A stretch of DNA of 64,000 nucleotides from Aciduliprofundum sp. MAR08-339 (GTDB lineage Archaea > Thermoplasmatota > Thermoplasmata > Thermoplasmatales > Aciduliprofundaceae), in the NCBI RefSeq assembly GCF_000327505.1, contig NC_019942.1, positions 1,178,001 through 1,242,000 of the forward strand. Reading direction: 5' to 3'. Below, piece by piece: positions 25,634 through 59,997 of this stretch. The notes under the pieces were generated by a model, which searched no databases, was not told where the DNA came from, and worked only from the letters and a program-made list of their open reading frames with translations. Numbering within the stretch: the first letter of the stretch is position 1; each line of letters begins with the position of its first letter. Both the position numbers and the translations under genes were made by a program.

Positions 25634-28600
25634 TTAGTGATGCTCTTCCTCGACCTCATCTATCTTTTCCTGAGGATATAGGGTATGTGGCTCTTCTTCA
25701 TTTTGGGGTGACTCGTTCTCCCGTGTTACATATTCAACCTTGGGTTTTCTTGCTGCAGCTGCGAATGCCACTATAAGGGCTATTATTGCAATGACAATGC
25801 CCGCATATCCTATCTGATCACTTGTATTTATGGCTTGAGATTGCTCATCATTTTTCGCCTTTATATTCGATATCTGCGTATTCAGATTATCTGCCTTGCC
25901 CTTCAGATCGTTTATCTGGTTCTGTAGATTCTGGATGTTAGAGTTTATCTTCTCCATAAGGGTGGTGTTCATATTCTCAATGGCCATGTTCAGAGCACTT
26001 ATATTTTCCTGAAGAGCATTCTCAAGGTCATTGAGCTTTGCGTCAAGAGCGCTTATTTCATTCTCGATCTGGGACACATTACCCTTCAATGTGGATATTT
26101 CACTCTGCATTGTGCTTATCTGAGACTTTATGTTTCCTATCTCTGCATTTATATTGTTTATGGCCTTCCACAGTTCTGGTAACTGTGGCAAATACAGCAC
26201 TGTAACAATCTCGGTGGCAGAATTACCCGCGCTATCCGTTGCTGTTACCTTGAATACATTCTCACCATCCTCAAGTGTAGCCTTGTATGTGAAAGTGCCA
26301 TCAGAATTGACAGTTACCTGTTCTCCGTTTATTGTCACAGAGGCTCCCGGATCCGTAGTACCATTGATCCAGAACACGGAATTGTAGGTAAGAGGCACAT
26401 TTGTCGGAGAGGTTATTTTCAGCTCTGGAGGAGTGGTATCTACTTCAAAGTTCCAGGACATGGAGGCAGTATTACCACCATTGTCTGTTAACTCCACACT
26501 CACTGTGTGCTTTCCATCGGAGAGTAGGAATGGAACATGAGCCACAATGGTGCCGTTGTTTCCATACGTGGTAAGGGTTGCCATTATAGATATGCCATCT
26601 ATCTCCACAGAAACTTTTGAGAAACCGCTGTATATCTCATCATACCAGCAGAACTTCAAGGTTGGCGCTCGAGTATTCACAACCTTATCTGCAAGGGAGA
26701 AACTCTTCAATTCTGGAGCAATCGTATCGGTTAGGTTCAAGGTATAGTAAATCACATCGTTTGAAGCACCTCCCGTTGTCAAAGTTGCCACCTCTCCAGG
26801 AGTATTTGAAACTATCTTGAAGTAATGAATTCCTGCAAAAGTATTGCCAAGGGGTATTGACACGGCGGAATAGGATCCAGACGCGATTGAACCCACAGAG
26901 GATTTTCCAATAAAGCTTATGCCTGTGGCATAGGCATCTATGTAGAAGCCCGTGTAATTCACAGCCTCATCGGATCTAAGTTCCACATAAACCTTAGAAC
27001 CGTTTATGAACGGAGTCCAGAGATTCTGATAGAAGCCGGTATACTCAACCTGAAGTGCTCCCGTTGAGTTGTATATATACACATAATCGTATCCTGGCTC
27101 CACATAGAGATAGTTGAAGTGAAGTGCTATTCTCGTGGCATTTTGAGCGCTTATCTCCCACGTATGATCATAGTTGTTTGGATACGGGTGAGGAGATTCA
27201 ACATCTACCTGACTCACTCCCTTTATTTCGTAGAGCTCAACGGTTGTTCCCTTGGAACTCAATGGCCCATAATTGTAGAGTGTTATCTTTGCATTATCAT
27301 TGTTCTGAGCCAGGCCTCTTGGAGTAACATCATAGCTCAGGACCTTGAAGGTTGTTATTCCATAATAGCCATTTGGATAATAAAATCCTACGTCATTGGC
27401 TGTGTTAATATCTCCCGGTGTATTGGCCATTACTATAATCTCATCTGTTCCTGCGTATTGTGGTGTCCAATGTACCGTTATAAACTTTGTTTCTCCGGGA
27501 TTGAGAGTGACCGTTAGGTTTTTAATGTATCCATAGTCATCCATAACGCTCACATTGGATATTGCAGACTCAGATGTGCCTATATTGGATATTTCAAATG
27601 TTATGTAATTGGCCTCACCCATAACAGGATCATTCTTTATGAACACCTTTTGAACCCACACATCAACGGGTAGATGCACATGGAAGAGGCCCCATATTGC
27701 GTTGTTTGCAGAATTGGTATCATTGAGCACATCTGCACTGGCAACCACGTACTGCCATCTAGCAGATGAATTTGTTGGATCCAATCCAAGAGGTATGAGA
27801 TTTACTGCTTTCCAGGGAATGGTTACATATGCCACTTCACCTGGAGCCAGAGAACTCACCGTCTTGTTTCCAAGCCAGATGAGTGGATGTGTTAGATTAT
27901 GCTGTTGGAACACAAGCACGTAATTTTCCAAATAGAAATGCACGGTTATATCTGTGGCCATTTTAGTGCCCGCATTGTAAATCACAGCAGTCACATTTGT
28001 TATCTTTCCAAAGGCAACATCTCCGTAGTCGAGAAGAGTTATGACCTGGATATCAGGACCTGTGTTGTTTGAATTTCTCCAATTTTCCTCGCCACCTTTC
28101 ACCTTGCTCTTGTGCATTTCCAAGGGCGGCATAGGAGAATTACATGACATGTAGAACCTTGTATTCTTCCCATCCTCGCTGTAAACGGAGAGTATATACG
28201 TGCCTTCTCTACCCGGTGTAAACGAGTATGTGAAATTATTGATTCCACCTACGGAAGAGGTTGGACTCAGCGTCTTCATATCAAGTATGAAATCATAATA
28301 CGTATCTGCAGAGCCCCACATTCCAGAGCCATAGTCATGCTCAAGATAAAGGAGTTCAACCTTCACCCGCGGAGAGTCCGTCTGTATGTTAATATGTACC
28401 TCCTTGCCTCTGGTAATCATAGGCACATCATTGGAATTGTAAACAGCATTGGGTATTACAACCTTTGGCTGGTTATAGGATGGGTAACTAGCCCCACTTC
28501 CCGAAACTTTCAGAGCAGGATCACCTATAAGGGAGTATTCGAAATAGGACCTCTGCCATGGATTATCGTTGAGGCCTGTATCCCAGGGATCAATCATCCT

Positions 28601-30433
28601 CAGCTTGGGACCAAGCCACTGGTTATACAGGGAAAGTGCATAGTAATACATCATTCCGAGGGTAACATATCCGTATATATGTGTACCTATGTAATAACCA
28701 GCCACAGTTCCATCCTCTGTTATCAAATCTCCAAAATCGTTTGGAGCCACCAAGGTACCGTTATCGAACCAAGCAAGAGTGCTTCCATAGGCTTCCCTGT
28801 CTCCTCCGTAGTAAGCAATTATTCCATCTGGGGCATATAGCATCTTCTCAGCGATGGAAGTTCCTCCGTTAATCCCAGAAGCGAATTCAGATGGATACAT
28901 CTCCTCATCCCAAGCACCATTTAGACAGGAACCTGAGATGTATATCGGCAAGCTTCCGTAGGTTGAGTTCATACTGAAATCCCAAGCACTTATTTCATCG
29001 TTGTGATGCCAGAATGAATATCCAGAGCCATGCGTTATCTCCACTATCATATCGCTGTTGTACATCATCTTCACAAAGTTGTTGTAGGTGAAGTTTCTCA
29101 ATGTGTGGAAGTACTCGGTAACCTTCACACCATCAAGCCATCCATAGTTGAGAGGCTCTAATACGCCTGTCTCTCCCAGGAAATAGGGAGTTTCGAATAC
29201 TTGGCCTCCAGAGAGAGTAACATTCTCTATACCACCACTCTTGTGTGTTGCATAGTATATGATTTTATTTACAACAATATCTGCAGTCAGGGGATTCACG
29301 GGAATTCTGCCAAAATAGAATCTGGGTTCGTAACTGAAATGGGTGGAGTTGTAATTTGGCTGCGCATAGAAAGCATCAGTTGGAATCCATGCATCGTACA
29401 TATCACTGTATCCGAGGTATGCAAGCAAATACATGTACTGATCGGTCCAATAGTAACTTGGTGGCACCATTCTGGCATTTCCAAATATGGTTACATACTC
29501 CACATTGCTTCCATAACTCTCATTTTGAAGGAACGCTATTATCTTCTTTGCAAGGGTGTAATTGTACCCTATTATGGCACTTTTATCAAGAGGCAAGGTC
29601 GCGTTGTTGAAGTAGGCATAGGGATCAGTGGTTGAGTTTGCATAACCATTCACTGGAGGGTTCGGAGCAGGCTGGAAATTCTTGGCAATCCAGGTTGTGG
29701 TAACGACCCAGGAGGTCAAACCTGTGCTGTTATGGAAATTGGCCAATCTTTGTGCCTGTGCCTTTAGCTGCGGAGACGTAATTATTATGTTAGGGACATC
29801 TATGGGTGCACTCCCTGATTTTAACTTACCGAGCTCATAATTAACGCTCACCACAGCGTTTGTCAGAACTCTTATCTCATTGGTAACCGGATTGTACCTT
29901 ACCGGATAGAGGTACACATTCACTTCCACTCCGTCCCTGCTTCTGCTCACGGTGTAAGAGTACACCTTATAGGGATAGAAACTGTTGCTCTTGTAAACCT
30001 TGACATTGTATTTTGGAGGAGAATATTTGGATGGAAAAGCCTTTCCAGAGTTCAGAAGCGGTGCAGGTGCGGGAGATATCTTGAGGGTTCCATAGTTCAC
30101 CTCATGGGTGGCCTTCACATTCACATTAACATGCTCCACATTCTTGGGAAGTTTAAAACTCAAAATCTTTACAGGCACAACGGGCTGTCCTGGAATCTGG
30201 AGAACCCTTGCTCCATGCAGAATAAGATACTTCCCGCCATTCGGTCCTCTGACATATTTGAGGGCATTTAGATCTATGTGCACAATTTTGGTTATTTCAT
30301 TGCTCGAAGATATTTTCTTCGCGCCCGTTGCAGTTGCATATGGCTGAAAACTGGTGAGCACTGCAAGTGCTGTTAGAACCATTAAAAGGACTACTAGTAC
30401 ACTACTCACCTTTTTATAACTACCACCTTTCAT
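25634..30433 (-). CDS. Very large cell-surface C25 (gingipain-like) cysteine peptidase
   Basis: The 1599-residue protein has a signal peptide (hydrophobic residues about 11-35), a propeptide, and a peptidase C25 domain with a catalytic His (ITHGSG, about residue 467) and Cys (SGSCLNG, about residue 501). Behind it come several beta-sandwich repeats of CARDB type (VFIKNDP, NIGTSESAISNVSV), an Ig-like domain starting PPELKITSPTNVP, then a long coiled coil rich in IxxLxxxI heptads (about residues 1430-1545), a membrane helix (about 1553-1573) and a charged cytoplasmic tail. So it is a tethered surface protease on a stalk. Many Asn-x-Thr/Ser sites fit S-layer-like glycosylation. It is the largest gene here and has a short gap to the kinase gene. 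Confidence 0.9.
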   Translation of the reverse strand: MKGGSYKKVSSVLVVLLMVLTALAVLTSFQPYATATGAKKISSSNEITKIVHIDLNALKYVRGPNGGKYLILHGARVLQIPGQPVVPVKILSFKLPKNVEHVNVNVKATHEVNYGTLKISPAPAPLLNSGKAFPSKYSPPKYNVKVYKSNSFYPYKVYSYTVSRSRDGVEVNVYLYPVRYNPVTNEIRVLTNAVVSVNYELGKLKSGSAPIDVPNIIITSPQLKAQAQRLANFHNSTGLTSWVVTTTWIAKNFQPAPNPPVNGYANSTTDPYAYFNNATLPLDKSAIIGYNYTLAKKIIAFLQNESYGSNVEYVTIFGNARMVPPSYYWTDQYMYLLAYLGYSDMYDAWIPTDAFYAQPNYNSTHFSYEPRFYFGRIPVNPLTADIVVNKIIYYATHKSGGIENVTLSGGQVFETPYFLGETGVLEPLNYGWLDGVKVTEYFHTLRNFTYNNFVKMMYNSDMIVEITHGSGYSFWHHNDEISAWDFSMNSTYGSLPIYISGSCLNGAWDEEMYPSEFASGINGGTSIAEKMLYAPDGIIAYYGGDREAYGSTLAWFDNGTLVAPNDFGDLITEDGTVAGYYIGTHIYGYVTLGMMYYYALSLYNQWLGPKLRMIDPWDTGLNDNPWQRSYFEYSLIGDPALKVSGSGASYPSYNQPKVVIPNAVYNSNDVPMITRGKEVHINIQTDSPRVKVELLYLEHDYGSGMWGSADTYYDFILDMKTLSPTSSVGGINNFTYSFTPGREGTYILSVYSEDGKNTRFYMSCNSPMPPLEMHKSKVKGGEENWRNSNNTGPDIQVITLLDYGDVAFGKITNVTAVIYNAGTKMATDITVHFYLENYVLVFQQHNLTHPLIWLGNKTVSSLAPGEVAYVTIPWKAVNLIPLGLDPTNSSARWQYVVASADVLNDTNSANNAIWGLFHVHLPVDVWVQKVFIKNDPVMGEANYITFEISNIGTSESAISNVSVMDDYGYIKNLTVTLNPGETKFITVHWTPQYAGTDEIIVMANTPGDINTANDVGFYYPNGYYGITTFKVLSYDVTPRGLAQNNDNAKITLYNYGPLSSKGTTVELYEIKGVSQVDVESPHPYPNNYDHTWEISAQNATRIALHFNYLYVEPGYDYVYIYNSTGALQVEYTGFYQNLWTPFINGSKVYVELRSDEAVNYTGFYIDAYATGISFIGKSSVGSIASGSYSAVSIPLGNTFAGIHYFKIVSNTPGEVATLTTGGASNDVIYYTLNLTDTIAPELKSFSLADKVVNTRAPTLKFCWYDEIYSGFSKVSVEIDGISIMATLTTYGNNGTIVAHVPFLLSDGKHTVSVELTDNGGNTASMSWNFEVDTTPPELKITSPTNVPLTYNSVFWINGTTDPGASVTINGEQVTVNSDGTFTYKATLEDGENVFKVTATDSAGNSATEIVTVLYLPQLPELWKAINNINAEIGNIKSQISTMQSEISTLKGNVSQIENEISALDAKLNDLENALQENISALNMAIENMNTTLMEKINSNIQNLQNQINDLKGKADNLNTQISNIKAKNDEQSQAINTSDQIGYAGIVIAIIALIVAFAAAARKPKVEYVTRENESPQNEEEPHTLYPQEKIDEVEEEHH

Positions 30434-41891: not shown

Positions 41892-43316
41892 TCAACCTCT
41901 TATTTTAATTTCGGGTAAAGTATCATTGAACTCATTATCAATTAGACTTATTTGCTTCTTAATGATTTTTCTCATTTCTATCGCTGGTTTTAAACAAAAT
42001 GTTTCAAACTCTTTTTTATAAATATCTTCAACTTTGTGTATATGCGGGAAAAGCAGTTTTAAATAACCTGTGCTTATTTTCACTATCGCTCTTGTATCTC
42101 TCGTGTCAGCGTTTTTAGGTATATCTAACAAAGAATCTACTACTTTAGCAAAATCAGGTATTGTTCTTAATTTGTGTAATATTTCGGAGAAATATTCTAC
42201 ATTCAATGCATATCCTCTCAACTTTAAATCTTCTCGCATTCTAGGTAATCTCCATCCTTCAATGAAACCATGAAATCTATCTAATAGTGCAGAATCTTGA
42301 AAGAATTTTGGTAAATTAACGAAATATTTGTTATGTAGGGGTTTTCTATCTTTTTTTAATGGGATGTTTCCCAATAACATAAATCCAGCAGAAGAAACTC
42401 CTCTATAGTCTGCTACAGAAAAATTTCCTGATTCTAAATAATTTTTTAAAGCCCCTTGTAATTCACTTGGGTCCGTAAATTTTATAGTTTCGATTTCATC
42501 CAAGACTACAAAATCATAGCGGGTTATTATGCCAGGAGTTGAACGGGCAACATCGTAAAGCAACTTTGCCCTTGAAACAACACCACCACTTATAACCCAA
42601 CCGTATTTACTTAGATTATTAAATGTATAAGATTTGCCAGTTCCTTTGGGAGCAAGTTCTATCATATTCAAGTTTGGTTCAACAAAAACGAGAAGCCGAG
42701 CCAAAAATAATAACTTTTGAGAAAGCGATTCAAACCCATCGGGATTGTATTCCATAGAACGTATCATAAGGTCTATCCATTCTTCTAAAGTAAATTCTTT
42801 TCGCTTCTCCCTGAAATATTTCACATCCACATCATAAGGTTTAAATGGTTTGTAATCCACTATTTCTATTGCTCCTCTTTGTTTTCCTTCAGGCGGAATA
42901 TAAACTAATTTAACGACACCCCAGACTTCCCCTCCTTTTAATTCTGGGAACTTTTTAGCAATATACTGAGGAATCCGACCCTCATTGGGTTTTATACCTA
43001 TATCTGGTATAGAAAATCTCAGTATTCCTGACTTTATATCTGGGTCTACTACAATTCTCGCAAGCAATGTGACCTCTTTTAAATCGTTTAAAAGAGTTCC
43101 TTTTATTTTGCTCTCTTTATGTGCAATATGGGCATTCAAAAAAAGCTTTAGAGCATCAACATCCAAATTTCCATACTCATCTGTAAACTTCCTTAATATC
43201 CAATCCTTGACAAAAGATGGAAGATTATATCCAGAAAATATCCTATATTCTTTTGGACTTTTAAACACGGATTCCTCTGGAAATATTCTCTTTATTTTAT
43301 CATCTAACTCATTCAT
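41892..43316 (-). CDS. brxL: BREX type 4 protein BrxL (AAA+, Lon-like family)
   Basis: The 474-residue protein has a Walker A APKGTGKSY (near residues 222-230) and Walker B VVLDE (about 270-274), in the BrxL form IELAPKGTGKSY followed by SGGVVSRAKLLYD and RYDFVVLDEIE. BrxL proteins are AAA+ complexes of BREX phage defence. The typical type 1 BrxL is about 680 residues with a C-terminal Lon-like protease domain; this chain ends soon after the AAA+ module, so that domain seems absent. It is the last gene of the operon, overlapping pglZ by 4 bases, and is AT-rich. Confidence 0.85.
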   Translation of the reverse strand: MNELDDKIKRIFPEESVFKSPKEYRIFSGYNLPSFVKDWILRKFTDEYGNLDVDALKLFLNAHIAHKESKIKGTLLNDLKEVTLLARIVVDPDIKSGILRFSIPDIGIKPNEGRIPQYIAKKFPELKGGEVWGVVKLVYIPPEGKQRGAIEIVDYKPFKPYDVDVKYFREKRKEFTLEEWIDLMIRSMEYNPDGFESLSQKLLFLARLLVFVEPNLNMIELAPKGTGKSYTFNNLSKYGWVISGGVVSRAKLLYDVARSTPGIITRYDFVVLDEIETIKFTDPSELQGALKNYLESGNFSVADYRGVSSAGFMLLGNIPLKKDRKPLHNKYFVNLPKFFQDSALLDRFHGFIEGWRLPRMREDLKLRGYALNVEYFSEILHKLRTIPDFAKVVDSLLDIPKNADTRDTRAIVKISTGYLKLLFPHIHKVEDIYKKEFETFCLKPAIEMRKIIKKQISLIDNEFNDTLPEIKIRG

Positions 43317-45700
43317 AGTAGATCCCTCTCCTTAAATCCTCCTATAATAGTTACCTTTATTTGGTAGTCCTTATCTCCTATTTTCAATACTATCGTGTGT
43401 TCTCCAACTTTTAAGCCTCTTAGATCTATCTTATAGATATCATCCTCTTTCTCGTAAGACACATTCAATGATCGCTCATTGAGAAAAGCTTCAGGAATAT
43501 ACAAAGGCTGTGGGTATATTTTAAATTGAACTACAGGATTAGTTATCCAGACCTCAGAATTAATAAGTTCAATTTCATATTCAGTTTTGTCTTTTTCAGT
43601 TTCTATTACAATATAAGGTACTAAAACTTCTTCAGGAGTGGCCCCTCCATGAACCTCTCTATAAGGAGTATTATTTAATGAAACATGTTTCAATGCAACA
43701 AGGACCTTTCTACCCCGGCAATTCCCCTCATCAATGTTCCACACAATAAAATATTCGTCCTCTTTGTAATTTACCTCGTCGATCCACATACATCTTCCCT
43801 CATGTTCAGTGTTTGGCAAATCGAGTCTTTTAAAATTACCAAAATCCTTCAAACACAAAAAACTGAATCCGTGATCTGAAAGGATGCCAATTTTTTCATA
43901 TTGCATCTCAATAATTTCTTTTATTATTTTTTCTACGAGTTCAAATTCTTTGATTAGATCATCTGGATATTTATATGGATTTTGATTATGGATGTGCTTA
44001 TCTAAATTTCCAACTTTTTCAAATTCGTATCTATTGCATTCTGTAATGCTTGGCAAATTTACCCGCGTAAGTAACTTATTTTTTACGATTTTTCCTTTTT
44101 CTTTTCCATATTTATTGAGCAGATGAACTACTAATGAAAACCATTCCGCTCCTAACCCATCTATCCACACATATTTAATCTCCTCTTCTATTTTTGCTTT
44201 AGGCAAAGAATAATACCAATCTGAAAAAGTAGACTTATTTCTGTTTTTGTTATTAATTAGTTCTTCTATTTTTAGAGATTTACTATGCCTTATTTTTGAA
44301 TAATTGTACTCTTTAAAATATTCAAGTATCCAATTATCCACTTCGTTATCGGGCTTTATTAACTCCCAATCTAAATAGTAAGCCAATTCTGGATAAACAT
44401 CTTTTAAGTTAGGAAGAAGTCTTTGAATTTCTTGGATATCAACATTTTTTAGTTCAGAAATTAGGTATTTCCTCTCAGTAAATGTTATGTTGGTTAAATA
44501 TTCGAGCTTTTTCTTCAACGGGTAGCTTTTTATATTATCAAGTTCATTATAAAGTTTCTCTTCTACAAATCGAGCTGAGAAGTTGAGATTCTTATGTATG
44601 TAGTTTAAAAATTCCTTTCTCTCGGAAAAAACATCCTTAGTTGGTGTTTCAGAAGGTAGCTGAAATATCTCCAACCATAGTTTTTCTATTAAATCCTCCT
44701 CTTTTAATTCTTCCAGTCTTTCGAAACATTTGTGTAAATAGGAAGACTTAAACTTATCTAAAGCTAAGAAGAGGTTTCTGATTAACCATCTTTCATAATA
44801 ATCATTAGTTTTCAAATAGCAATCGAGAAATTCTTTAGGTGTTAATTTTTCTATACTTCTAAAATTAAAATGTCTTAAAAATATACCTTCTATGGTTAAT
44901 CCTTTTCTATTGTATCTGCCTACCTCCTTTATGAGTTCGTTCCAAAACTCTATTTCGTCATCTTTAAACTTTACCGGAACTTTGATTTCAAAAATCTCTT
45001 CAAGAAATTCTTTTTGATTTGAAATCCCCTTTAACTCGAATGCTTGATCTGGGAGAAAATTTTTATAAAAATATGACAAGGATTGGGACAGGGATAGGAT
45101 ACCTTTCACATTCTCTCTTTTCCAAACACTTAACCATTCTTCAGTAGTAGATACTAATACAAAGTTTTCTAAGAGAAGATTCTTATAATCTAAATCAAAA
45201 TTTATTTGATATATAATTGTTTTTTGAGAAGATGTTTCTAACTTCCAAACTGATGCCCATTCTTCCTTTCTGTAAAAGTTAGTCCAGAACTCTTGTTCAA
45301 ATCTCTCCCACAAACCAACTAAGGGTATATAGATTCTTATATTGTTTTGCTTTTCAATTTCAGTTAGGCTTTTTAAAGTTATATAAAAATCTTCTTTACT
45401 TTGAAATCTCAGAAATTCTGATAGTGGAACCACAACAGCATTGTTAGATATTTCCCTTATCCAATTTACTATTTCATCTGTTGTTAGCCATCTATTTTTA
45501 TCAGATAGGAGTTCCGTTATTTCTCTACTTTCAACATTACAATTTTTAACTAGAAATCTAATAATTTCTCGTAATTCTTCGAAAGAATTAAGGAAGATTA
45601 ACCTTACCGGAAATCTTCTGTCAGAGGGCATTTTAGAATTCTTATCCTGCTTTATTCGAGCATACAATTCTTTAAGAGAATGAAAATCTTCTACTCCCAT
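43313..45700 (-). CDS. pglZ: BREX type 4 PglZ-domain phosphatase-like protein
   Basis: The 795-residue protein contains the alkaline-phosphatase-like PglZ domain in its C-terminal half: the WIDGLGAEWF segment with the catalytic-site Asp, ILSDHGFSFL with Asp-His metal ligands, and NTEHEGRCMW. The N-terminal half is a long helical region of unknown role. PglZ is the hallmark of BREX and of the older Pgl systems. It overlaps both neighbours (1 base with brxC, 4 with brxL). Confidence 0.88.
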   Translation of the reverse strand: MGVEDFHSLKELYARIKQDKNSKMPSDRRFPVRLIFLNSFEELREIIRFLVKNCNVESREITELLSDKNRWLTTDEIVNWIREISNNAVVVPLSEFLRFQSKEDFYITLKSLTEIEKQNNIRIYIPLVGLWERFEQEFWTNFYRKEEWASVWKLETSSQKTIIYQINFDLDYKNLLLENFVLVSTTEEWLSVWKRENVKGILSLSQSLSYFYKNFLPDQAFELKGISNQKEFLEEIFEIKVPVKFKDDEIEFWNELIKEVGRYNRKGLTIEGIFLRHFNFRSIEKLTPKEFLDCYLKTNDYYERWLIRNLFLALDKFKSSYLHKCFERLEELKEEDLIEKLWLEIFQLPSETPTKDVFSERKEFLNYIHKNLNFSARFVEEKLYNELDNIKSYPLKKKLEYLTNITFTERKYLISELKNVDIQEIQRLLPNLKDVYPELAYYLDWELIKPDNEVDNWILEYFKEYNYSKIRHSKSLKIEELINNKNRNKSTFSDWYYSLPKAKIEEEIKYVWIDGLGAEWFSLVVHLLNKYGKEKGKIVKNKLLTRVNLPSITECNRYEFEKVGNLDKHIHNQNPYKYPDDLIKEFELVEKIIKEIIEMQYEKIGILSDHGFSFLCLKDFGNFKRLDLPNTEHEGRCMWIDEVNYKEDEYFIVWNIDEGNCRGRKVLVALKHVSLNNTPYREVHGGATPEEVLVPYIVIETEKDKTEYEIELINSEVWITNPVVQFKIYPQPLYIPEAFLNERSLNVSYEKEDDIYKIDLRGLKVGEHTIVLKIGDKDYQIKVTIIGGFKERDLL

Positions 45701-48700
45701 CAGGATCCCTCCAGATATTTTTCAATTGTCTCTATAATCTCAGGATGTTCATCTATCAGTTTAATTAAAATTTCTTTGAGCCTCTCTGCAGAATAGCTCT
45801 CTATTTGTTGTTTAATATTTTTCACCTTTTCTTCAGATATGGGATGCGAATGGAATTTATAGTGTTGAGAAGTGGTTATCCCATCGTCCCGCTTAGAGTA
45901 TTCCAATTCATCAATCTGTTTTTTAAGCTTCTCTCTATCCCAATCTTTAACTTTCTCTCTAACTTTATCTTCTGTCCAAGAAGCAACTTCTTCCTGCATA
46001 TTTCTTTTAATGTAGCCTATAACCTCTCCTATATCCTCAGATGAAATTTCAACTCCTTCAATACATTTCAACCACTTTTTAAACAACTCCCCCGGATTTT
46101 CTCGGTCTATTAAAATGTCAAGATCATACTTTACGTCCTCTATAGTATTTAGGTAATCCTTTATCTTTTCATACGTAAGATCTCTATCAATTGATTGAAC
46201 GAGTTCAAAAATAGTATCTATAGCTTTCTTAGTATTTTCATTTATATTCTCTGCGAATTTGAATACCCATATAGGAAATCCTTGTTTTTTAACCCATTCT
46301 CTTATTTTCCATCTTGCATCATTCAAACTTCTAACGTCTTTAAGTTTAAATAAATCTTTCAAAATCTCAATAAGTTCTTCTTCATCTTCTGTCCCAAAAC
46401 GAACCTCCAACTTCTCTCCATGCGTTCCTTTTTCCCAGTAATCAAACAAAGTCAATATTTTATCTCTCATTACCTCTTTTTGAATTGGTATTCCTGTTCC
46501 TTCCTCAAAAAGTTTACCAATATATTCTCTCATTAAAAAGCCAATTGCTGCCATATTAATCATATTGGGGTATAATCCATATGGTGGTTTGGTGAGGAAT
46601 CTTAGAGCATCTCCTAGATTAAATACTCCGCTATCTCTTTCTTTTTCAAAGACTTTTCGTATTTCTAAATACATCTTTTTTAGAGGGTGATTTTCAAAAA
46701 CATCATCTTTTATTTTTAGATTTATATCTACGATGTATTCCCCATTGTTGTCTTTAATGATCTCCCGTAAATATCTTTCCGGACCTTTAGATGTCTTTTC
46801 TTCTATATCCTTTCTGTTATTAGCGAATAAAAATATTTCAGCAGAAGTTTTAGATCGTTTGTATGTCCAAATGTTTCTGTTCTTTTGAGTCCCATCTATA
46901 TTTTCTAAACCATAGGAAAATATCTTTCTGGATAATTCTTCGTTTATCTTTCTGCTAAACTGACTCATTAATTCTTTACCGCTTTCATTCTGCAAGAACC
47001 ACTCAATATATCCAGATTTTACTTGATTCATCCAGTTATCAATAATCTTTCTTGCATATTCCTCGTTTATATTTCTCTCTTCTGGATAATTATGTTTGTC
47101 TGCAACTATTGCCCTTGCTTTGTATTCTATGAATCTATTAAATGTTTTGTCGTCTAAGGTTGCTTCAGATACAACAAAAATTATATTTCTGAGATCATCA
47201 TTAGAGATCTCCTTCAATATGTTTTTTATTTGTTGTAATTCTTGTTCACTTTTTCCTAAAAACAAACATAAGTGAATTGTATAATCTTTTTGGAAGGCTT
47301 TTTCTATTTTTCTTCTTATTAAATGTTCATTTAAACTAGCATCCATTATCATGAACTCGACAACTCTATTTACGGAAGCGCTAATAGTATCTTGTAGTTC
47401 TTTTTCTTGCTTCCTATTGAGTATTCTATCAATTGTATTATATTCACTTTTTATCTTATTCTTTTCGGTTTCAACTTCTCTTGAAGGTAACCCTGAACTT
47501 GTAATTAAGTATAAGTTATCTGGTGTTTTATTGATTATTTGCTTGTCATCAATGAATGATAGAATGCTGGTTAAATACTTCCGGTCAATAGCGCCAGCAA
47601 AAAGATTTATTATATTCTTCTCCGAAGGAACTACAAGAGAAGATTCTCCAACTTCTACAAATCTGTAAAGAAAGTTTAGAAGAAGTGCACCTTTAAACAC
47701 AGACAAATATTCATCACCTTTCTCCTCCAAAATGCTCTTATGAAGTTTAAATTTTTCCAACACAGAATAAACTTTTTCACTTCCCATCCTTTCAAATTCT
47801 TCATAGAAAAAGTCCCAAAGATAATCCACTGTTAAAAATATCCTTCCTTTCTCTCCTGGATTTTCCTTTATGAATTTCTTGAAACCACTTCTTTCATCAT
47901 ACAAAAAATTGAAAATGCTCCTTTCTGTAGAACCTATATTTCTTGCTATAAAAGTTGCTAAATATGCAGTATAAGGATGGATTGGGAAAAGACTCTCTAA
48001 GGATTTTTGAACTTGTGTTCCTTCACTTCCGGTAATTTCCTCTATTAAAGATTTGACTGAATCCATATATTTATCTTTAATCTCTGTAAATTTGTCCATA
48101 TCTTTTTTCTTAATAGCAGCGTTGATAATGTGGTAAGTGGTTATAGGCTCCATTGAATAATCCAATACTTTAAATCTTCCAAGAACTTTCTCTACATCAT
48201 CTCTTGAAATATTTGTCTGGTAGGGTTTTCTATGGGCGACAACAAACAAATAAACACCTTTATTGATAGATAGTTCTGCTATATTCTGCAATTCTGTCAA
48301 TAATAGACCAGATTTAGGCAGTTCCAAAATTCCAGTGAATTCATCCCAATAAATTACTAAATAATCCGCAATTTCTTTATTTTTTAGTTCATTTTGTACT
48401 TCTACCAACCAGTTTGCAATATTTTCAGTAGAGAAGTGAATACCCTTTTGTGAAAGTATGTTCTCTATTTTTCTTAATATGGTTATATCTCCCTGTTGAA
48501 GCTTAGAAATTATATCCTCTTTGGTCCCATAAATCTCTAACTCTGTTCCTTTAAAAATTTTTTCCCAATTTATCTCATCACTTTTTAATTTTTTAATCAT
48601 TTTATCAAAATCAGTTTTTGTATTGAGTTCAATACCTTCTTTCTTTAAGGCATTCTTTACTGCTTTTTCAAGTACCAATGCAAAGGTTCTATTATCAATA

Positions 48701-49062
48701 ATAGAGGATGTCCCTTTTAAAACAACTGGAAAAGCCCTCTTATTTTTACGGAAATTTTTTATTTTAAACTTTATTTGTTCTTCCAGATTTTCAATGAAAT
48801 CGTTTATCTCATCAAGATCATCAAAAAGAATGTGCTTTACTACAGCGGTTGCGTGGCTTTTTCCGGTGCCATAAGCTCCCTGAAGCCATATTGATTTTCT
48901 TTCTTCAGGTTTGCTACTTTCAAGCGAGTTTATTGTTTCTGATAGCACTTTATAAAATTTTTCGTTAGGGATAAATTGCTTCCAGTATGTTCCAATTTCA
49001 TTTTCTAAATCATAAACAGGTTGAAAGTAATCATTTAACCCTATAATTTCCTCATACCTCAT
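45700..49062 (-). CDS. brxC: BREX type 4 large ATPase BrxC/PglY
   Basis: The 1120-residue protein has a Walker A LQGAYGTGKSHA (residues 60-71) and a Walker B LVIYWDEF (about 235-242). Long helical, Lys/Glu-rich C-terminal parts are typical of BrxC/PglY, the largest ATPase of BREX, which is needed for both modification and defence in type 1. The start at 49062 overlaps the brxP stop by 4 bases. The coding sequence is distinctly AT-rich. Confidence 0.87.
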   Translation of the reverse strand: MRYEEIIGLNDYFQPVYDLENEIGTYWKQFIPNEKFYKVLSETINSLESSKPEERKSIWLQGAYGTGKSHATAVVKHILFDDLDEINDFIENLEEQIKFKIKNFRKNKRAFPVVLKGTSSIIDNRTFALVLEKAVKNALKKEGIELNTKTDFDKMIKKLKSDEINWEKIFKGTELEIYGTKEDIISKLQQGDITILRKIENILSQKGIHFSTENIANWLVEVQNELKNKEIADYLVIYWDEFTGILELPKSGLLLTELQNIAELSINKGVYLFVVAHRKPYQTNISRDDVEKVLGRFKVLDYSMEPITTYHIINAAIKKKDMDKFTEIKDKYMDSVKSLIEEITGSEGTQVQKSLESLFPIHPYTAYLATFIARNIGSTERSIFNFLYDERSGFKKFIKENPGEKGRIFLTVDYLWDFFYEEFERMGSEKVYSVLEKFKLHKSILEEKGDEYLSVFKGALLLNFLYRFVEVGESSLVVPSEKNIINLFAGAIDRKYLTSILSFIDDKQIINKTPDNLYLITSSGLPSREVETEKNKIKSEYNTIDRILNRKQEKELQDTISASVNRVVEFMIMDASLNEHLIRRKIEKAFQKDYTIHLCLFLGKSEQELQQIKNILKEISNDDLRNIIFVVSEATLDDKTFNRFIEYKARAIVADKHNYPEERNINEEYARKIIDNWMNQVKSGYIEWFLQNESGKELMSQFSRKINEELSRKIFSYGLENIDGTQKNRNIWTYKRSKTSAEIFLFANNRKDIEEKTSKGPERYLREIIKDNNGEYIVDINLKIKDDVFENHPLKKMYLEIRKVFEKERDSGVFNLGDALRFLTKPPYGLYPNMINMAAIGFLMREYIGKLFEEGTGIPIQKEVMRDKILTLFDYWEKGTHGEKLEVRFGTEDEEELIEILKDLFKLKDVRSLNDARWKIREWVKKQGFPIWVFKFAENINENTKKAIDTIFELVQSIDRDLTYEKIKDYLNTIEDVKYDLDILIDRENPGELFKKWLKCIEGVEISSEDIGEVIGYIKRNMQEEVASWTEDKVREKVKDWDREKLKKQIDELEYSKRDDGITTSQHYKFHSHPISEEKVKNIKQQIESYSAERLKEILIKLIDEHPEIIETIEKYLEGS

Positions 49063-51434
49063 TTTAATCTCACCTCCGCAATTTTTACTATATCCAAAGA
49101 TGTAAGGTCTTCTCTTAGGTAAATGTTATCCAAGTCAGCTACTAAGTCAACTCTTAAAATCTCTTCTTTATCTTCTTGAAGTCCTCTTAAAATTCTTTCT
49201 AATTTGTCTTTTGAAATTCCAAATAATTTATATGGTCCGCCTTTGAATTCTTTCGTATATAATTCAGATACTGTAAAATCTCTCCTTCCAATATGTTCTG
49301 CTGCTTTATAAAGGCTGTACGCAACTGCCAATGGATGAACATCATCTGTGCCAATTTTTTTAATAGATTTTACAACTCTCCCCTTTTTATCTAAGAGGCC
49401 AATTTTTAGTTCCAATCCCAAGGGAGAATTGTCAAACATATTAACCATAGCATCTATTGGATTACTTAGTGTACCTCTGCTTAGGTTGGGATAAGCCAAA
49501 CTAATTTTTTCTTTCAAATCTTTTTTAGTAATTATTGATCCCCAACTAATTTGTTCATTATACCATCTAATTACTTGGGAGTTGTAATACATATTGTTCC
49601 AAATTATTTCCCATACAAACAAACTATCTTTAGTATATATTTTTCTCAGATACTTGCTTAGGGGTGTGGTTCTTTTGCTTTTAGGATATATTAACTCTGC
49701 ATCAATAAGCCAATGAAGCACTGCGGGTATTTGTTTGGGACCTAAGTTATTTTCTTCTAACCATTCTTCCCCAAAATTAAAAAATGCATTTAACCACTCT
49801 TCTCTAAGACCAAAGGTAGAATATTTATCTATTCCCCCTGTTCTTTTTTTCATAGACACACCTCCAATATTTTCATGTACAGATTTGGCCACCAAGCATC
49901 CTTTTTCAACAAAATTAATACAGTTTCCACAATGAGTACATAAACCACTATTTATTTTAACTTTTGGTATCACATTCAAAGCACCTGTGGGGCATTCTAT
50001 TTCACAAGCGCCACAATGGATGCAAAAGGCAGTTTTATATGAGACTTTCTTAACCTTACTAATTAAATCAATATTTGATCCCACATCATAAAAAGTTATT
50101 GATGTTTTATTCTTTTTTATATTTAATTCAAAGGGAATCACGGAATTTTTAATCTTCAATTCTCCATAAATATTTCCTGCTGGACCCTTCTTGTACATTA
50201 CTTCTCCTATAGTTTTACTCCACTCCAAAAAATCTTCCTTTGGATTCAACATAATGGATTTAATAGAACTATGATCGGTAATAAATCTTACATCTGAGTC
50301 TTTGTTGAGTCCCCTCCCTCCAGATCTCTTTTTCCACTCACCATTAGAAATATACCTGTTTATTTGTCCTTCTTCTTTTAACCCCATGGATTCAGCATAT
50401 TTCTTTAATAAACTAAAATATCCCCCGATATCTTCTTCCAACTTACCCAAGACAAATTCCGTCCATTCAGATGAAAAGGGACATACTGAACATCCTACTC
50501 TGGATAAACCCGTTCGATATCCTCGATTCAATAAAAGATTTCTGAAAAAAAGATATAGGAATATCTCTGATGTATTCCAATAGAGTACGGGCCTTGCATT
50601 TACTGTCATAAGGTGTTTGACATTTTTTGCTATCCTGCTATAGTGTGATCTTTTCTCACTCTCTTCGGTTCTCACCCCTTCAAAAACTATGATTTTGAAT
50701 TTATCATTTTTAGTATTTATAAACTCATCTTTTATAAGTTTGTGGAACGGTGCCGTCTTGATTACTGTGCAACACCACCTGTGAATTCTGCTTGGTGGAC
50801 CAAAATCACTCCAAAACTCTATCGCTGGTTTAGGTGGTTTTGCAGTATAAAATTTCAATCCAGGATATCGTTTTTCGTATTCTTTTTTAGTTTTTTCTAC
50901 ATTCTCATAGGTATATGAAATTTCCATAGTAGTATCTGAAAATATAACTACTAAATCATCTGGAGGTATAATTCTTGTTACAAGGTCTAACACCACCTGT
51001 GAATCTTTTCCTCCACTATAAGCTACAGCAAATAAGAATCTTTTCCTTTTATAGACTTTATATGTATGCTCTATAAAATCCAAAGCTTCATTCTCTAGAA
51101 CAAATAAAGATTCTTTATTTTTTTCAATCACCTTAGTAACATCTATTGGTTCCAACTTGAAATTTTGTCCTTTTTCGGTGAGTACTATTTCAGGAGGTTC
51201 AAATATGTTGCCTCCTTTAGCCTCGGCTACAAGCACTCCTTTATAGTAATATCTTCTTCCAATCGCCCAGAGCAGAGGCTCTTGAACTTTAGGATAGTCC
51301 CAAAATTTATTAAAACCTAATAGATCCAACTCTTCAAAGAATACTGGACGAGGGGGAGTTATTGTCTGATCTCTCCTATTACTGTTTGTTAATATGATTC
51401 CATTATTAGTTGAATCCCATATTACCTTATACAT
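49059..51434 (-). CDS. brxP: BREX type 4 PAPS-reductase-like protein BrxP with Fe-S clusters
   Basis: The 791-residue protein has a PP-loop ATP-pyrophosphatase motif SGGKDS (residues 140-145) of the PAPS-reductase/DndC family, cysteines in RWCCTVIKTAP and VGCSVCPFSS that could hold a cluster as in DndC, and a ferredoxin-like pair (CIHCGACEIECPTG and CTHCGNCINF). It takes the place of the methyltransferase of other BREX types and may act on DNA sulfur chemistry; that is inference. A GAGGTG element (complement of 51443-51448) lies 8 bases before the ATG. Confidence 0.87.
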   Translation of the reverse strand: MYKVIWDSTNNGIILTNSNRRDQTITPPRPVFFEELDLLGFNKFWDYPKVQEPLLWAIGRRYYYKGVLVAEAKGGNIFEPPEIVLTEKGQNFKLEPIDVTKVIEKNKESLFVLENEALDFIEHTYKVYKRKRFLFAVAYSGGKDSQVVLDLVTRIIPPDDLVVIFSDTTMEISYTYENVEKTKKEYEKRYPGLKFYTAKPPKPAIEFWSDFGPPSRIHRWCCTVIKTAPFHKLIKDEFINTKNDKFKIIVFEGVRTEESEKRSHYSRIAKNVKHLMTVNARPVLYWNTSEIFLYLFFRNLLLNRGYRTGLSRVGCSVCPFSSEWTEFVLGKLEEDIGGYFSLLKKYAESMGLKEEGQINRYISNGEWKKRSGGRGLNKDSDVRFITDHSSIKSIMLNPKEDFLEWSKTIGEVMYKKGPAGNIYGELKIKNSVIPFELNIKKNKTSITFYDVGSNIDLISKVKKVSYKTAFCIHCGACEIECPTGALNVIPKVKINSGLCTHCGNCINFVEKGCLVAKSVHENIGGVSMKKRTGGIDKYSTFGLREEWLNAFFNFGEEWLEENNLGPKQIPAVLHWLIDAELIYPKSKRTTPLSKYLRKIYTKDSLFVWEIIWNNMYYNSQVIRWYNEQISWGSIITKKDLKEKISLAYPNLSRGTLSNPIDAMVNMFDNSPLGLELKIGLLDKKGRVVKSIKKIGTDDVHPLAVAYSLYKAAEHIGRRDFTVSELYTKEFKGGPYKLFGISKDKLERILRGLQEDKEEILRVDLVADLDNIYLREDLTSLDIVKIAEVRLK

Positions 51435-51679: not shown

Positions 51680-52030
51680 TCACACTTCGAACTCGACCTC
51701 ATCCCTGGAAATTTCCCTTATTTCCCTGCTATCTATTACCTCAAAATATCTTACCGGCTTGTTTAACGACTCTGCAAGTTCTATTTCTCTCTGCACTCCA
51801 TCGCTTATGGGTCCAAATACCCAGAGCTCATCACACCTCTTCACAAGATTGTTGTTGGCGTTTCTCACCATGTCCCTATCCACGGTATCAAGCAGGAAAT
51901 AATCAAAGAGCATGAAGGGATTTAAAGGCACGCAGTTGTGCTCAAGCACAAACCTAGAAATGTGTTGCCTGAAATAAAATGTGTGCTTTGACATGGCCGT
52001 GAATACAAGTTTCATATCCTCTGTTTCCAT
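51680..52030 (-). CDS. Small nucleoside-2-deoxyribosyltransferase-like protein
   Basis: The 116-residue product has a short beta strand (MKLVFTAMS), a helix, FDYFLLDT, a second strand DELWVFGPISDGVQREIELA, and VRYFEVID, which fits the flavodoxin-like fold of the NDT-like/DUF7768 group. The Asp and Glu in DELWVF and the GV.REIE helix are the expected substrate side. A TATA-like TATTTAAAA lies about 24 bases before the ATG at 52030 (leaderless). The role is unknown. Confidence 0.55.
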   Translation of the reverse strand: METEDMKLVFTAMSKHTFYFRQHISRFVLEHNCVPLNPFMLFDYFLLDTVDRDMVRNANNNLVKRCDELWVFGPISDGVQREIELAESLNKPVRYFEVIDSREIREISRDEVEFEV

Positions 52031-59284: not shown

Positions 59285-59917
59285 TTACCCCCCCAAGAAG
59301 AGGTATGCAGCATTGTTCGCAATTATAATTTTCTCCCGACCATTTTTGCTCTCATTTATGAGATTTGCCTTTATCAGTTTGTTCTTTGCATCTGAAAGTG
59401 TGGAATACCGGGATCCAAGGGCTCTTTTTATATCCTTCATAGAGGCTTTTCCACCGTACTTCTCAACCAGTGTTGTAAGAAATTTCATGGTTGTGGAATC
59501 CTTATCATGGATACGGATAAGACTATTTGAATCAGTTATCAAATTAATTGGCAAACGCAGGATCTTGGTTTCTCCGTTTTCAGTTGCCATATAAACCACA
59601 GGCACTCCGAGAACGGCCGCTCTTAACGCTAGCGAAAAAGCCATAATCTTCGTACCACCAGTTATATTGGCCACAGAATCCTCCGTAAGGTATCTGTCAA
59701 CGGCCTGAATACACTCATAAAAATTCATTGGATCTCTGACATGTACTTCAATCACATTATCCAACTCCTCTCTTACCTTGTCCAGTGCCTTTTTAATCTC
59801 CATTTCCTCATTCTCATCCACATAACCATAAATAACCACGTTTTCATCAGGTTTGAGAACCTTGGCAGTCTCTATCACCACCTTTGCGGTCCATCCAAGT
59901 GTTGAAATTAATCTCAT
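59285..59917 (-). CDS. Csa3-like CARF domain transcription regulator
   Basis: The 210-residue protein begins MRLISTLGWTAKVV and has the CARF signature ANITGGTKIMAFSLALRAA (about residues 85-103), which in Csa3/Csx1 binds cyclic oligoadenylate or similar ligands. Its C-terminal part is a winged helix (KDIKRALGSRYSTLSDAKNKL). GGAGATG lies before the ATG at 59917. No cas gene or CRISPR array is visible in this window. Confidence 0.7.
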   Translation of the reverse strand: MRLISTLGWTAKVVIETAKVLKPDENVVIYGYVDENEEMEIKKALDKVREELDNVIEVHVRDPMNFYECIQAVDRYLTEDSVANITGGTKIMAFSLALRAAVLGVPVVYMATENGETKILRLPINLITDSNSLIRIHDKDSTTMKFLTTLVEKYGGKASMKDIKRALGSRYSTLSDAKNKLIKANLINESKNGREKIIIANNAAYLFLGG

Positions 59918-59997
59918 TTTCATCTCCAAAGGTAAAGAACACTCAAATGATAAATTATTTTCTCCGAAGTTTTATGGTAAAAATAAAAAAAAGAAAA

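What the first reader, a model, noticed from the sequence alone, without database searches (positions are those of the whole stretch)
49059..51434. BrxP may link BREX to DNA sulfur chemistry
BrxP combines an SGGKDS PP-loop, DndC-like cysteines and a two-cluster ferredoxin module in one 791-residue chain. DndC-type proteins act in phosphorothioate formation. No dndA, dndB or dndD is seen in the window, so the sulfur donor and specificity subunits are unexplained. A built-in electron-transfer module suggests that it needs redox partners.
Basis: partly seen in the sequence, partly recalled or inferred. Interest (0 to 1): 0.7.

Follow-up and report, generated by a model that had tools for sequence, protein, structure and literature searches.

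The report
BREX type 4 sulfur-marking protein BrxP
This is a standard BREX type 4 anti-virus operon, a kind already reported to write sulfur into the DNA backbone; what appears new is that its host has no detectable enzyme of the usual sulfur-donating kind, and that the middle of its sulfur-inserting protein is swapped like a cassette between otherwise near-identical operons in bacteria and archaea.

Summary
ORF 49059-51434(-) is an intact 791-aa BrxP heading a four-gene BREX type 4 operon (brxP-brxC-pglZ-brxL). The proposed link to DNA sulfur chemistry is already published (brxPCZL is a phosphorothioation family). The 'DndC-like cysteines' are half right: the three-cysteine triad shared with DndC is present (C221, C315, C318), but DndC's extra cysteine dyad is absent. 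The 'missing' specificity subunit is not missing: residues 532-791 have the fold of SspB, so BrxP is an SspD-SspB fusion.

Two further results are, as far as I could check, not in the literature. (1) The host genome (one contig, 99.4% complete) encodes no cysteine desulfurase, nor do six other archaeal BrxP hosts (drafts), so a housekeeping desulfurase cannot be the donor here as currently assumed; sulfide carried on the triad cluster is the likeliest source. (2) BrxP residues ~197-692 are exchanged by recombination on otherwise near-identical operons (Fisher p 5e-36; a second, independent case in contigs related to Bacteroides), which marks the likely DNA-target recognition region. No chemistry was measured.

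The parts
49059..51434 (-). brxP, 791 aa: PP-loop thiolase + alpha/beta domain + 2[4Fe-4S] ferredoxin + SspB (DUF4007) domain
   Evidence: PADLOC BrxP E 2e-299 over residues 1-786; Pfam
51000..51017 (-). SGGKDS PP-loop, residues 140-145
   Evidence: read from the sequence; invariant in alignment A3
50772..50774 (-). C221, first cysteine of the PP-loop [4Fe-4S] triad
   Evidence: invariant in BrxP, SspD, own paralogues and DndC; cluster itself inferred
50481..50492 (-). C315 and C318 (GCxxC), second and third cysteines of the triad
   Evidence: invariant in BrxP, SspD, own paralogues and DndC; cluster itself inferred
50055..50330 (-). alpha/beta domain, about residues 369-460; among the most divergent parts between alleles
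   Evidence: model secondary structure; identity profile; named Mog1p/PsbP-like in PMC12839542
49896..50024 (-). two-cluster ferredoxin module, residues 471-513
   Evidence: Fer4 models; eight invariant cysteines
49062..49841 (-). SspB-like (DUF4007) domain, residues 532-791
   Evidence: fold match to SspB 6juf_B: Z 20.6, rmsd 3.2, 252 aligned; DUF4007 in 7 of 8 family members, best E 5e-10
49359..50846 (-). exchanged central cassette of brxP, about residues 197-692; candidate target-recognition region
   Evidence: third-codon identity falls from 65-86% in the brxP flanks to 34-45% in the centre for window/L007 and L007/L011; switch points near residues 196 and 692
45700..49062 (-). brxC, 1120 aa ATPase (SspC relative); overlaps brxP by 4 bp
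   Evidence: PADLOC BrxC 2138 bits, SspC models down to E 1e-26
43313..45700 (-). pglZ, BREX-4 type, 795 aa; overlaps brxC by 1 bp
   Evidence: NCBIfam NF033445 BREX_PglZ_4, 672.7 bits against cut-off 140
41892..43316 (-). brxL, 474 aa Lon-like ATPase; overlaps pglZ by 4 bp
   Evidence: TIGR02688 493 bits against cut-off 329

Best explanation
The locus is a horizontally acquired BREX type 4 operon. BrxP is the sulfur-inserting enzyme and the DNA reader in one chain. Its PP-loop domain uses ATP to activate the DNA phosphate (inferred). A [4Fe-4S] cluster held by C221, C315 and C318 carries one extra sulfide on its free iron, as proposed for NcsA, TtuA and LarE, and passes it to the activated phosphate (inferred). 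Its SspB domain selects, and perhaps nicks, the target strand (fold shown, activity inferred), with BrxC as motor (inferred). The ferredoxin module keeps the cluster reduced or loaded (inferred, weakest step). In this host, where no cysteine desulfurase was found (shown), the sulfur comes from free sulfide or Fe-S cluster sulfur (inferred). BrxP residues ~197-692 are a natural exchange cassette (shown) that sets the target sequence (inferred), as target-recognition-domain swaps do in HsdS.
For: BREX-4 membership. Phosphorothioation by brxPCZL is published (PMC11931770; PMC12839542). SspB fold: Z 20.6 over 252 residues. SspD-SspB fusion: on a Treponema plasmid an SspD (matching BrxP through the ferredoxin module), a DUF4007 protein, a large protein in the SspC position and a class-V aminotransferase are separate neighbouring genes. 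Triad conserved across BrxP, SspD, paralogues and DndC while DndC's dyad is absent; all 12 cysteines of this BrxP are triad (3), ferredoxin (8) or C222, which is Ser/Thr in the methanogen homologues, so no conserved cysteine is left to carry a persulfide. Three-cysteine [4Fe-4S] enzymes thought to bind sulfide at the free iron: PMC10067955, PMC9283937. No desulfurase: best Aminotran_5 match 95 bits, closest to PhnW/aspartate-glyoxylate aminotransferases, against 271-510 bits for the best match in 13 other BrxP hosts. Cassette: sites where L007 matches only L011 versus only L010 are 101:30, 146:383 and 51:10 in N-flank, centre and C-flank, Fisher p 5e-36; the lowest 200-codon window of the operon falls in brxP in all four pairs, with 0 of 2000 block permutations as low; L101 and L099 are 95.3% identical over 8.9 kb downstream while brxP after about codon 300 is 33-74%.
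Against: No sulfur in DNA has been measured for this strain. The structure model is of middling quality (mean pLDDT 66); residues 214-234 and 471-533, which carry C221 and the ferredoxin cysteines, are under 50, so the cluster geometry is not shown. Absence of a desulfurase rests on one Pfam family; an unrelated persulfide source is not excluded. Six of the seven desulfurase-less genomes are drafts. A swapped region marks diversifying exchange, not necessarily change of target sequence. The donor of the window's own central allele was not found. Whether SspB nicking residues are kept was not tested.
Confidence: 0.6

Rival explanations
1. Ordinary BREX type 4 as in the literature: a desulfurase or other persulfide enzyme, not recognised here, loads sulfur on BrxP; the host's lack of IscS/SufS is irrelevant.
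For: Published model: the sporadic linked desulfurase is replaced by housekeeping IscS/NifS/SufS (PMC12839542). 13 of 20 BrxP-bearing genomes tested have a clear desulfurase-type match.
Against: None in this single-contig, 99.4% complete genome, in the same-genus genome, or in six archaeal draft genomes with BrxP. BrxP has no conserved spare cysteine to take a persulfide.
Confidence: 0.25
2. The swapped centre of BrxP reflects escape from phage-encoded BREX inhibitors (or partner matching), not a change of target sequence.
For: Diversifying exchange is also expected under inhibitor pressure. The cassette includes catalytic parts (C221, C315, C318, ferredoxin), not only a DNA-binding domain.
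Against: The exchange is confined to the protein that carries the SspB domain; brxC, pglZ and brxL keep 71-85% third-codon identity in the hyperthermophile set. The most divergent parts are the alpha/beta domain and the first half of the SspB domain.
Confidence: 0.2
3. BrxP is a sulfate-assimilation enzyme (APS/PAPS reductase) or a tRNA thiolase that sits next to BREX genes by chance.
For: PAPS_reduct domain; fold matches to APS/PAPS reductases and TtuA.
Against: All 12 cysteines are accounted for, leaving none for the C-terminal catalytic cysteine of APS/PAPS reductases (that cysteine is from general knowledge). It overlaps brxC and the order brxP-brxC-pglZ-brxL is conserved across phyla. The cysH model scores far below cut-off (47.8 against 165.1).
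Confidence: 0.03

Closest known systems
BREX type 4 (brxP-brxC-pglZ-brxL)
   Same: All four genes, order, domain content, family models
   Different: No linked desulfurase (linked in 56% of taxa, PMC12839542) and none found anywhere in the host genome
Ssp system (SspABCD)
   Same: A plasmid SspD aligns with BrxP 29-526; SspB matches BrxP 532-791 by fold; BrxC matches SspC models
   Different: SspD and SspB are fused here; no SspA, SspE or SspFGH found in the scanned ORFs; PglZ and BrxL added
DndC (Dnd system)
   Same: PP-loop and three-cysteine triad
   Different: No cysteine dyad; extra ferredoxin and SspB domains; no dndB/D/E in scanned ORFs; DndC model score 33 against cut-off 290
NcsA / TtuA / LarE [4Fe-4S] sulfur transferases
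   Same: PP-loop fold (NcsA 6scy Z 12.9; LarE 8cnz Z 12.9) and three-cysteine pattern
   Different: Substrate is tRNA or a nucleotide cofactor; no ferredoxin plus SspB domains
Type I restriction HsdS subunits (general knowledge)
   Same: Central region swapped on a conserved backbone
   Different: In BrxP the swapped region also contains part of the catalytic domain; link to target sequence not tested

Membership tests
BREX type 4 | PAPS-reductase-domain gene brxP in place of a methyltransferase | tested here: met
   PADLOC BrxP 993 bits, full length
BREX type 4 | brxC, BREX-4 pglZ and brxL in the same operon | tested here: met
   NF033445 and TIGR02688 above cut-off, BrxC 2138 bits; genes overlap by 1-4 bp
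BREX type 4 | DUF4007/SspB domain present, often fused to BrxP | tested here: met
   SspB fold Z 20.6; DUF4007 in 7 of 8 members
BREX type 4 | phosphorothioate in host DNA | not testable with these tools
   needs LC-MS/MS or iodine cleavage
DndC family | TIGR03183 score above curated cut-off | tested here: not met
   33.2 bits against 290.4
DndC family | three-cysteine triad | tested here: met
   C221, C315, C318 align with DndC
DndC family | DndC-specific cysteine dyad | tested here: not met
   absent from BrxP, as PMC12839542 also states
Ssp system | SspB-type domain and SspC-type ATPase with a PP-loop enzyme | tested here: met
Ssp system | SspA desulfurase and SspE or SspFGH effector | tested here: not met
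   no desulfurase found in the genome; no Ssp effector among scanned window ORFs; rest of the genome not scanned for effectors
APS/PAPS reductase (CysH) | cysH model above cut-off and a C-terminal catalytic cysteine | tested here: not met
   TIGR00434 47.8 against 165.1; no cysteine outside triad, C222 and ferredoxin

The most novel reading that the evidence does not exclude
BREX type 4 can modify DNA with inorganic sulfide, with no cysteine desulfurase, through a sulfide-carrying [4Fe-4S] cluster in BrxP, and changes its target sequence by recombinational exchange of the BrxP centre, so that one chain carries both the chemistry and a swappable address and moves between archaea and bacteria.
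Probability: 0.42. Interest if true: 0.7.

Novelty: new member of a known kind. Interest (0 to 1): 0.5.

Why it matters
The headline link is known, but two open questions become directly testable. Where does the sulfur of DNA phosphorothioates come from when a cell has no cysteine desulfurase? And which part of a phosphorothioation system reads the target sequence? Pairs of near-identical operons that differ mainly in the BrxP centre (L101 and L099; L007 and L011) are natural experiments: mapping their modification motifs would address the second question, and this complete desulfurase-less genome is a suitable host for the first.

Tried and rejected
Close DndC membership: rejected (score and dyad). 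CysH-type reductase: rejected. Mosaic due to relaxed selection only: rejected, because third-codon identity at codons for identical residues also drops (82% in BrxP 1-196, 43% in 321-480, 88% after 692 for L007/L011) and L007's nearest relative switches. A sequence-profile search of the C-terminal domain against PDB did not find SspB; only fold comparison did. Empty-site analysis against the same-genus genome led nowhere: homologues of the two flanking genes lie at 715 kb and 482 kb there and are not syntenic. Promoter and terminator scans were below chance. One alignment was made with the start codon cut off (A1) and redone (A2, A3). The primary paper on BREX-4 phosphorothioation (Yuan et al., PMC12914056) is not held, so it may already discuss BrxP alleles. 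Attempts to find more near-identical operons with different alleles in viral contigs and Bacteroidales genomes gave no further close pair.

Full report
Observation. The ORF at 49059-51434 on the minus strand is intact, 791 aa. It is the first of four overlapping genes: brxP (49059-51434), brxC (45700-49062), pglZ (43313-45700) and brxL (41892-43316). The BrxP model of PADLOC matches residues 1-786 with 993 bits and the BrxC model 2138 bits; PglZ is the BREX-4 type (NF033445, 672.7 bits against a cut-off of 140) and BrxL scores above its cut-off. This is a canonical BREX type 4 operon. G+C is 31-33% across the operon and 41.4% over the window, and brxC, pglZ and brxL are 82-91% identical in protein to operons in a Thermotogaceae MAG (L007) and an Archaeoglobi MAG (L011), so it was acquired horizontally. 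Only two of 389 genomes of the host's phylum have a full-length BrxP.

Known part. BREX type 4 is already described as a phosphorothioation system. PMC11931770 lists dndABCDE, sspBCD and brxPCZL as the three synthesis families, and PMC12839542 treats type 4 as phosphorothioation-based, with BrxP fused to DUF4007, an extra alpha/beta domain, a ferredoxin-like region, and no DndC dyad. The primary report (Yuan et al. 2024, bioRxiv; PMC12914056) is cited there but not held here.

Cysteines. I aligned 14 BrxP sequences, one plasmid SspD, two PP-loop paralogues of the host and two DndC proteins. C221, C315 and C318 are invariant in all 19. DndC has two more cysteines just before the GCxxC motif; BrxP, SspD and the paralogues lack them. 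The eight ferredoxin cysteines are invariant in BrxP, in this SspD and in one host paralogue (L014), and absent from DndC and L015. The window BrxP has 12 cysteines in all: three triad, eight ferredoxin, and C222, which is Ser or Thr in the methanogen homologues. So there is no conserved cysteine left for a persulfide relay or for a CysH-type intermediate. The pattern is that of [4Fe-4S] sulfur transferases whose cluster has three cysteine ligands and, it is proposed, a sulfide on the fourth iron (NcsA, PMC10067955; LarE, PMC9283937). The cluster in BrxP is inferred.

Specificity subunit. An AlphaFold2 model from ten sequences (mean pLDDT 66; the C-terminal domain from about residue 540 is mostly 70-96) matches SspB crystal structures over residues 532-791 (6juf_B, Z 20.6, rmsd 3.2, 252 aligned) and PP-loop enzymes over about 100-330. 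DUF4007 is found in 7 of 8 family members (best E 5e-10), and below cut-off in the window protein itself (E 4e-5). On a Treponema plasmid an SspD (543 aa, aligned to BrxP 29-526), a DUF4007 protein, a large protein in the SspC position and a class-V aminotransferase are neighbouring separate genes.

Sulfur donor. Every Aminotran_5 match in the single-contig, 99.4% complete host genome was identified: a PhnW/aspartate-glyoxylate type aminotransferase, a glycine decarboxylase subunit, an ornithine/lysine decarboxylase relative, a DegT type sugar aminotransferase and two class I aminotransferases. No IscS, NifS, SufS, SspA or DndA type enzyme is among them. SufB-type proteins are present. Of 20 BrxP-bearing genomes tested, 13 have a full-length desulfurase-type match (best 271-510 bits) and seven do not (best 35-122 bits): this host, four genomes of the Methanothermococcus phylum and two Archaeoglobi; six of the seven are drafts. 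The same-genus genome also has none. A published survey finds complete Methanococcales genomes without SufS, and sulfide as the sulfur source of M. maripaludis (PMC8351635). PMC12839542 suggests that housekeeping desulfurases stand in where none is linked; on this evidence that cannot hold here. Near-identical operons persist both in a host with a desulfurase (Thermotogaceae) and in hosts without. The simplest reading is that BrxP can take sulfide; this is inferred.

Exchange cassette. Window, L007 and L011 share 82-91% protein and 71-85% third-codon identity in brxC, pglZ and brxL, but BrxP is only 60-74% identical. The loss is confined to the centre. For L007 against L011, third-codon identity at codons for identical residues is 82% (1-196), 43-44% (197-480), 49% (521-692) and 88% (693 to end). 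L007 is closest to L011 in the flanks and to Methanothermococcus L010 in the centre (101:30, 146:383, 51:10 discriminating sites; Fisher p 5e-36; switch points near residues 196 and 692). This is recombination, not relaxed selection. The window against L011 is lowest at 198-399 and recovers partly after about 520, so the exchanged stretch may come in two parts. A second, independent case: two viral-collection contigs related to the Bacteroides operon (L101, L099) are 95.3% identical over 8.9 kb that covers brxC, pglZ and brxL and 91% identical through the first part of brxP, while the rest of brxP is 33-74% identical. In all four pairs the lowest 200-codon window of the operon lies in brxP, and none of 2000 block permutations reached it. 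Flank-conserved, centre-swapped proteins in modification systems usually change target sequence (HsdS, general knowledge); the most divergent parts here are the alpha/beta domain and the first half of the SspB domain. That they read the target is inferred, at about 0.7.

Mechanism, with likelihoods. Phosphorothioation by BrxP with BrxC: about 0.85 (published for the family, not shown here). SspB domain in the chain: about 0.97 (shown by fold). Triad cluster carrying the sulfur: about 0.7. Sulfide rather than a desulfurase as donor in this host: about 0.6. Centre as target-recognition region: about 0.7. The ferredoxin's role (reducing or loading the cluster) is a guess.

Verdict. The finding as written restates a published idea with one error (dyad) and one omission (SspB domain). 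The locus itself is a new member of BREX type 4. The desulfurase-free host and the exchange cassette are the parts worth a specialist's time.

Noticed in passing
41892-51434: brxC, pglZ and brxL are shared at 71-85% third-codon identity between the archaeal genome here, a Thermotogaceae MAG (L007) and an Archaeoglobi MAG (L011): transfer between domains of life.
   Followed up: yes
L085 1501-3902; L082 1501-3840: brxP is broken in two other genomes: split into two overlapping frames in a Thermotogota genome (L085) and interrupted by an in-frame TGA in a draft genome (L082). Intact copies exist elsewhere.
   Followed up: no
45700-49062, codons about 1040-1120 of brxC: The last 80 residues of BrxC are much more variable (48-68% identity) than the rest; in third codons L007 and L011 agree there while the window differs.
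   Followed up: partly
59285-59929: A 214-aa CARF3-type protein (PADLOC PDLC01872, 401.7 bits), of a CRISPR-linked sensor family, 8 kb from the BREX operon.
   Followed up: no
51680-52030: 116-aa protein with DUF7768, related to phage nucleoside 2-deoxyribosyltransferases (phrog_355), just upstream of brxP.
   Followed up: no
L014 1000-2745(-): The host's own 581-aa PP-loop protein has the same triad and ferredoxin module as BrxP but no SspB domain; PP-loop relatives occur in most genomes of the phylum, function unknown.
   Followed up: partly
25634-30433: 1599-aa peptidase family C25 (gingipain-type) protein with propeptide and Ig-like domains in an archaeal genome.
   Followed up: no
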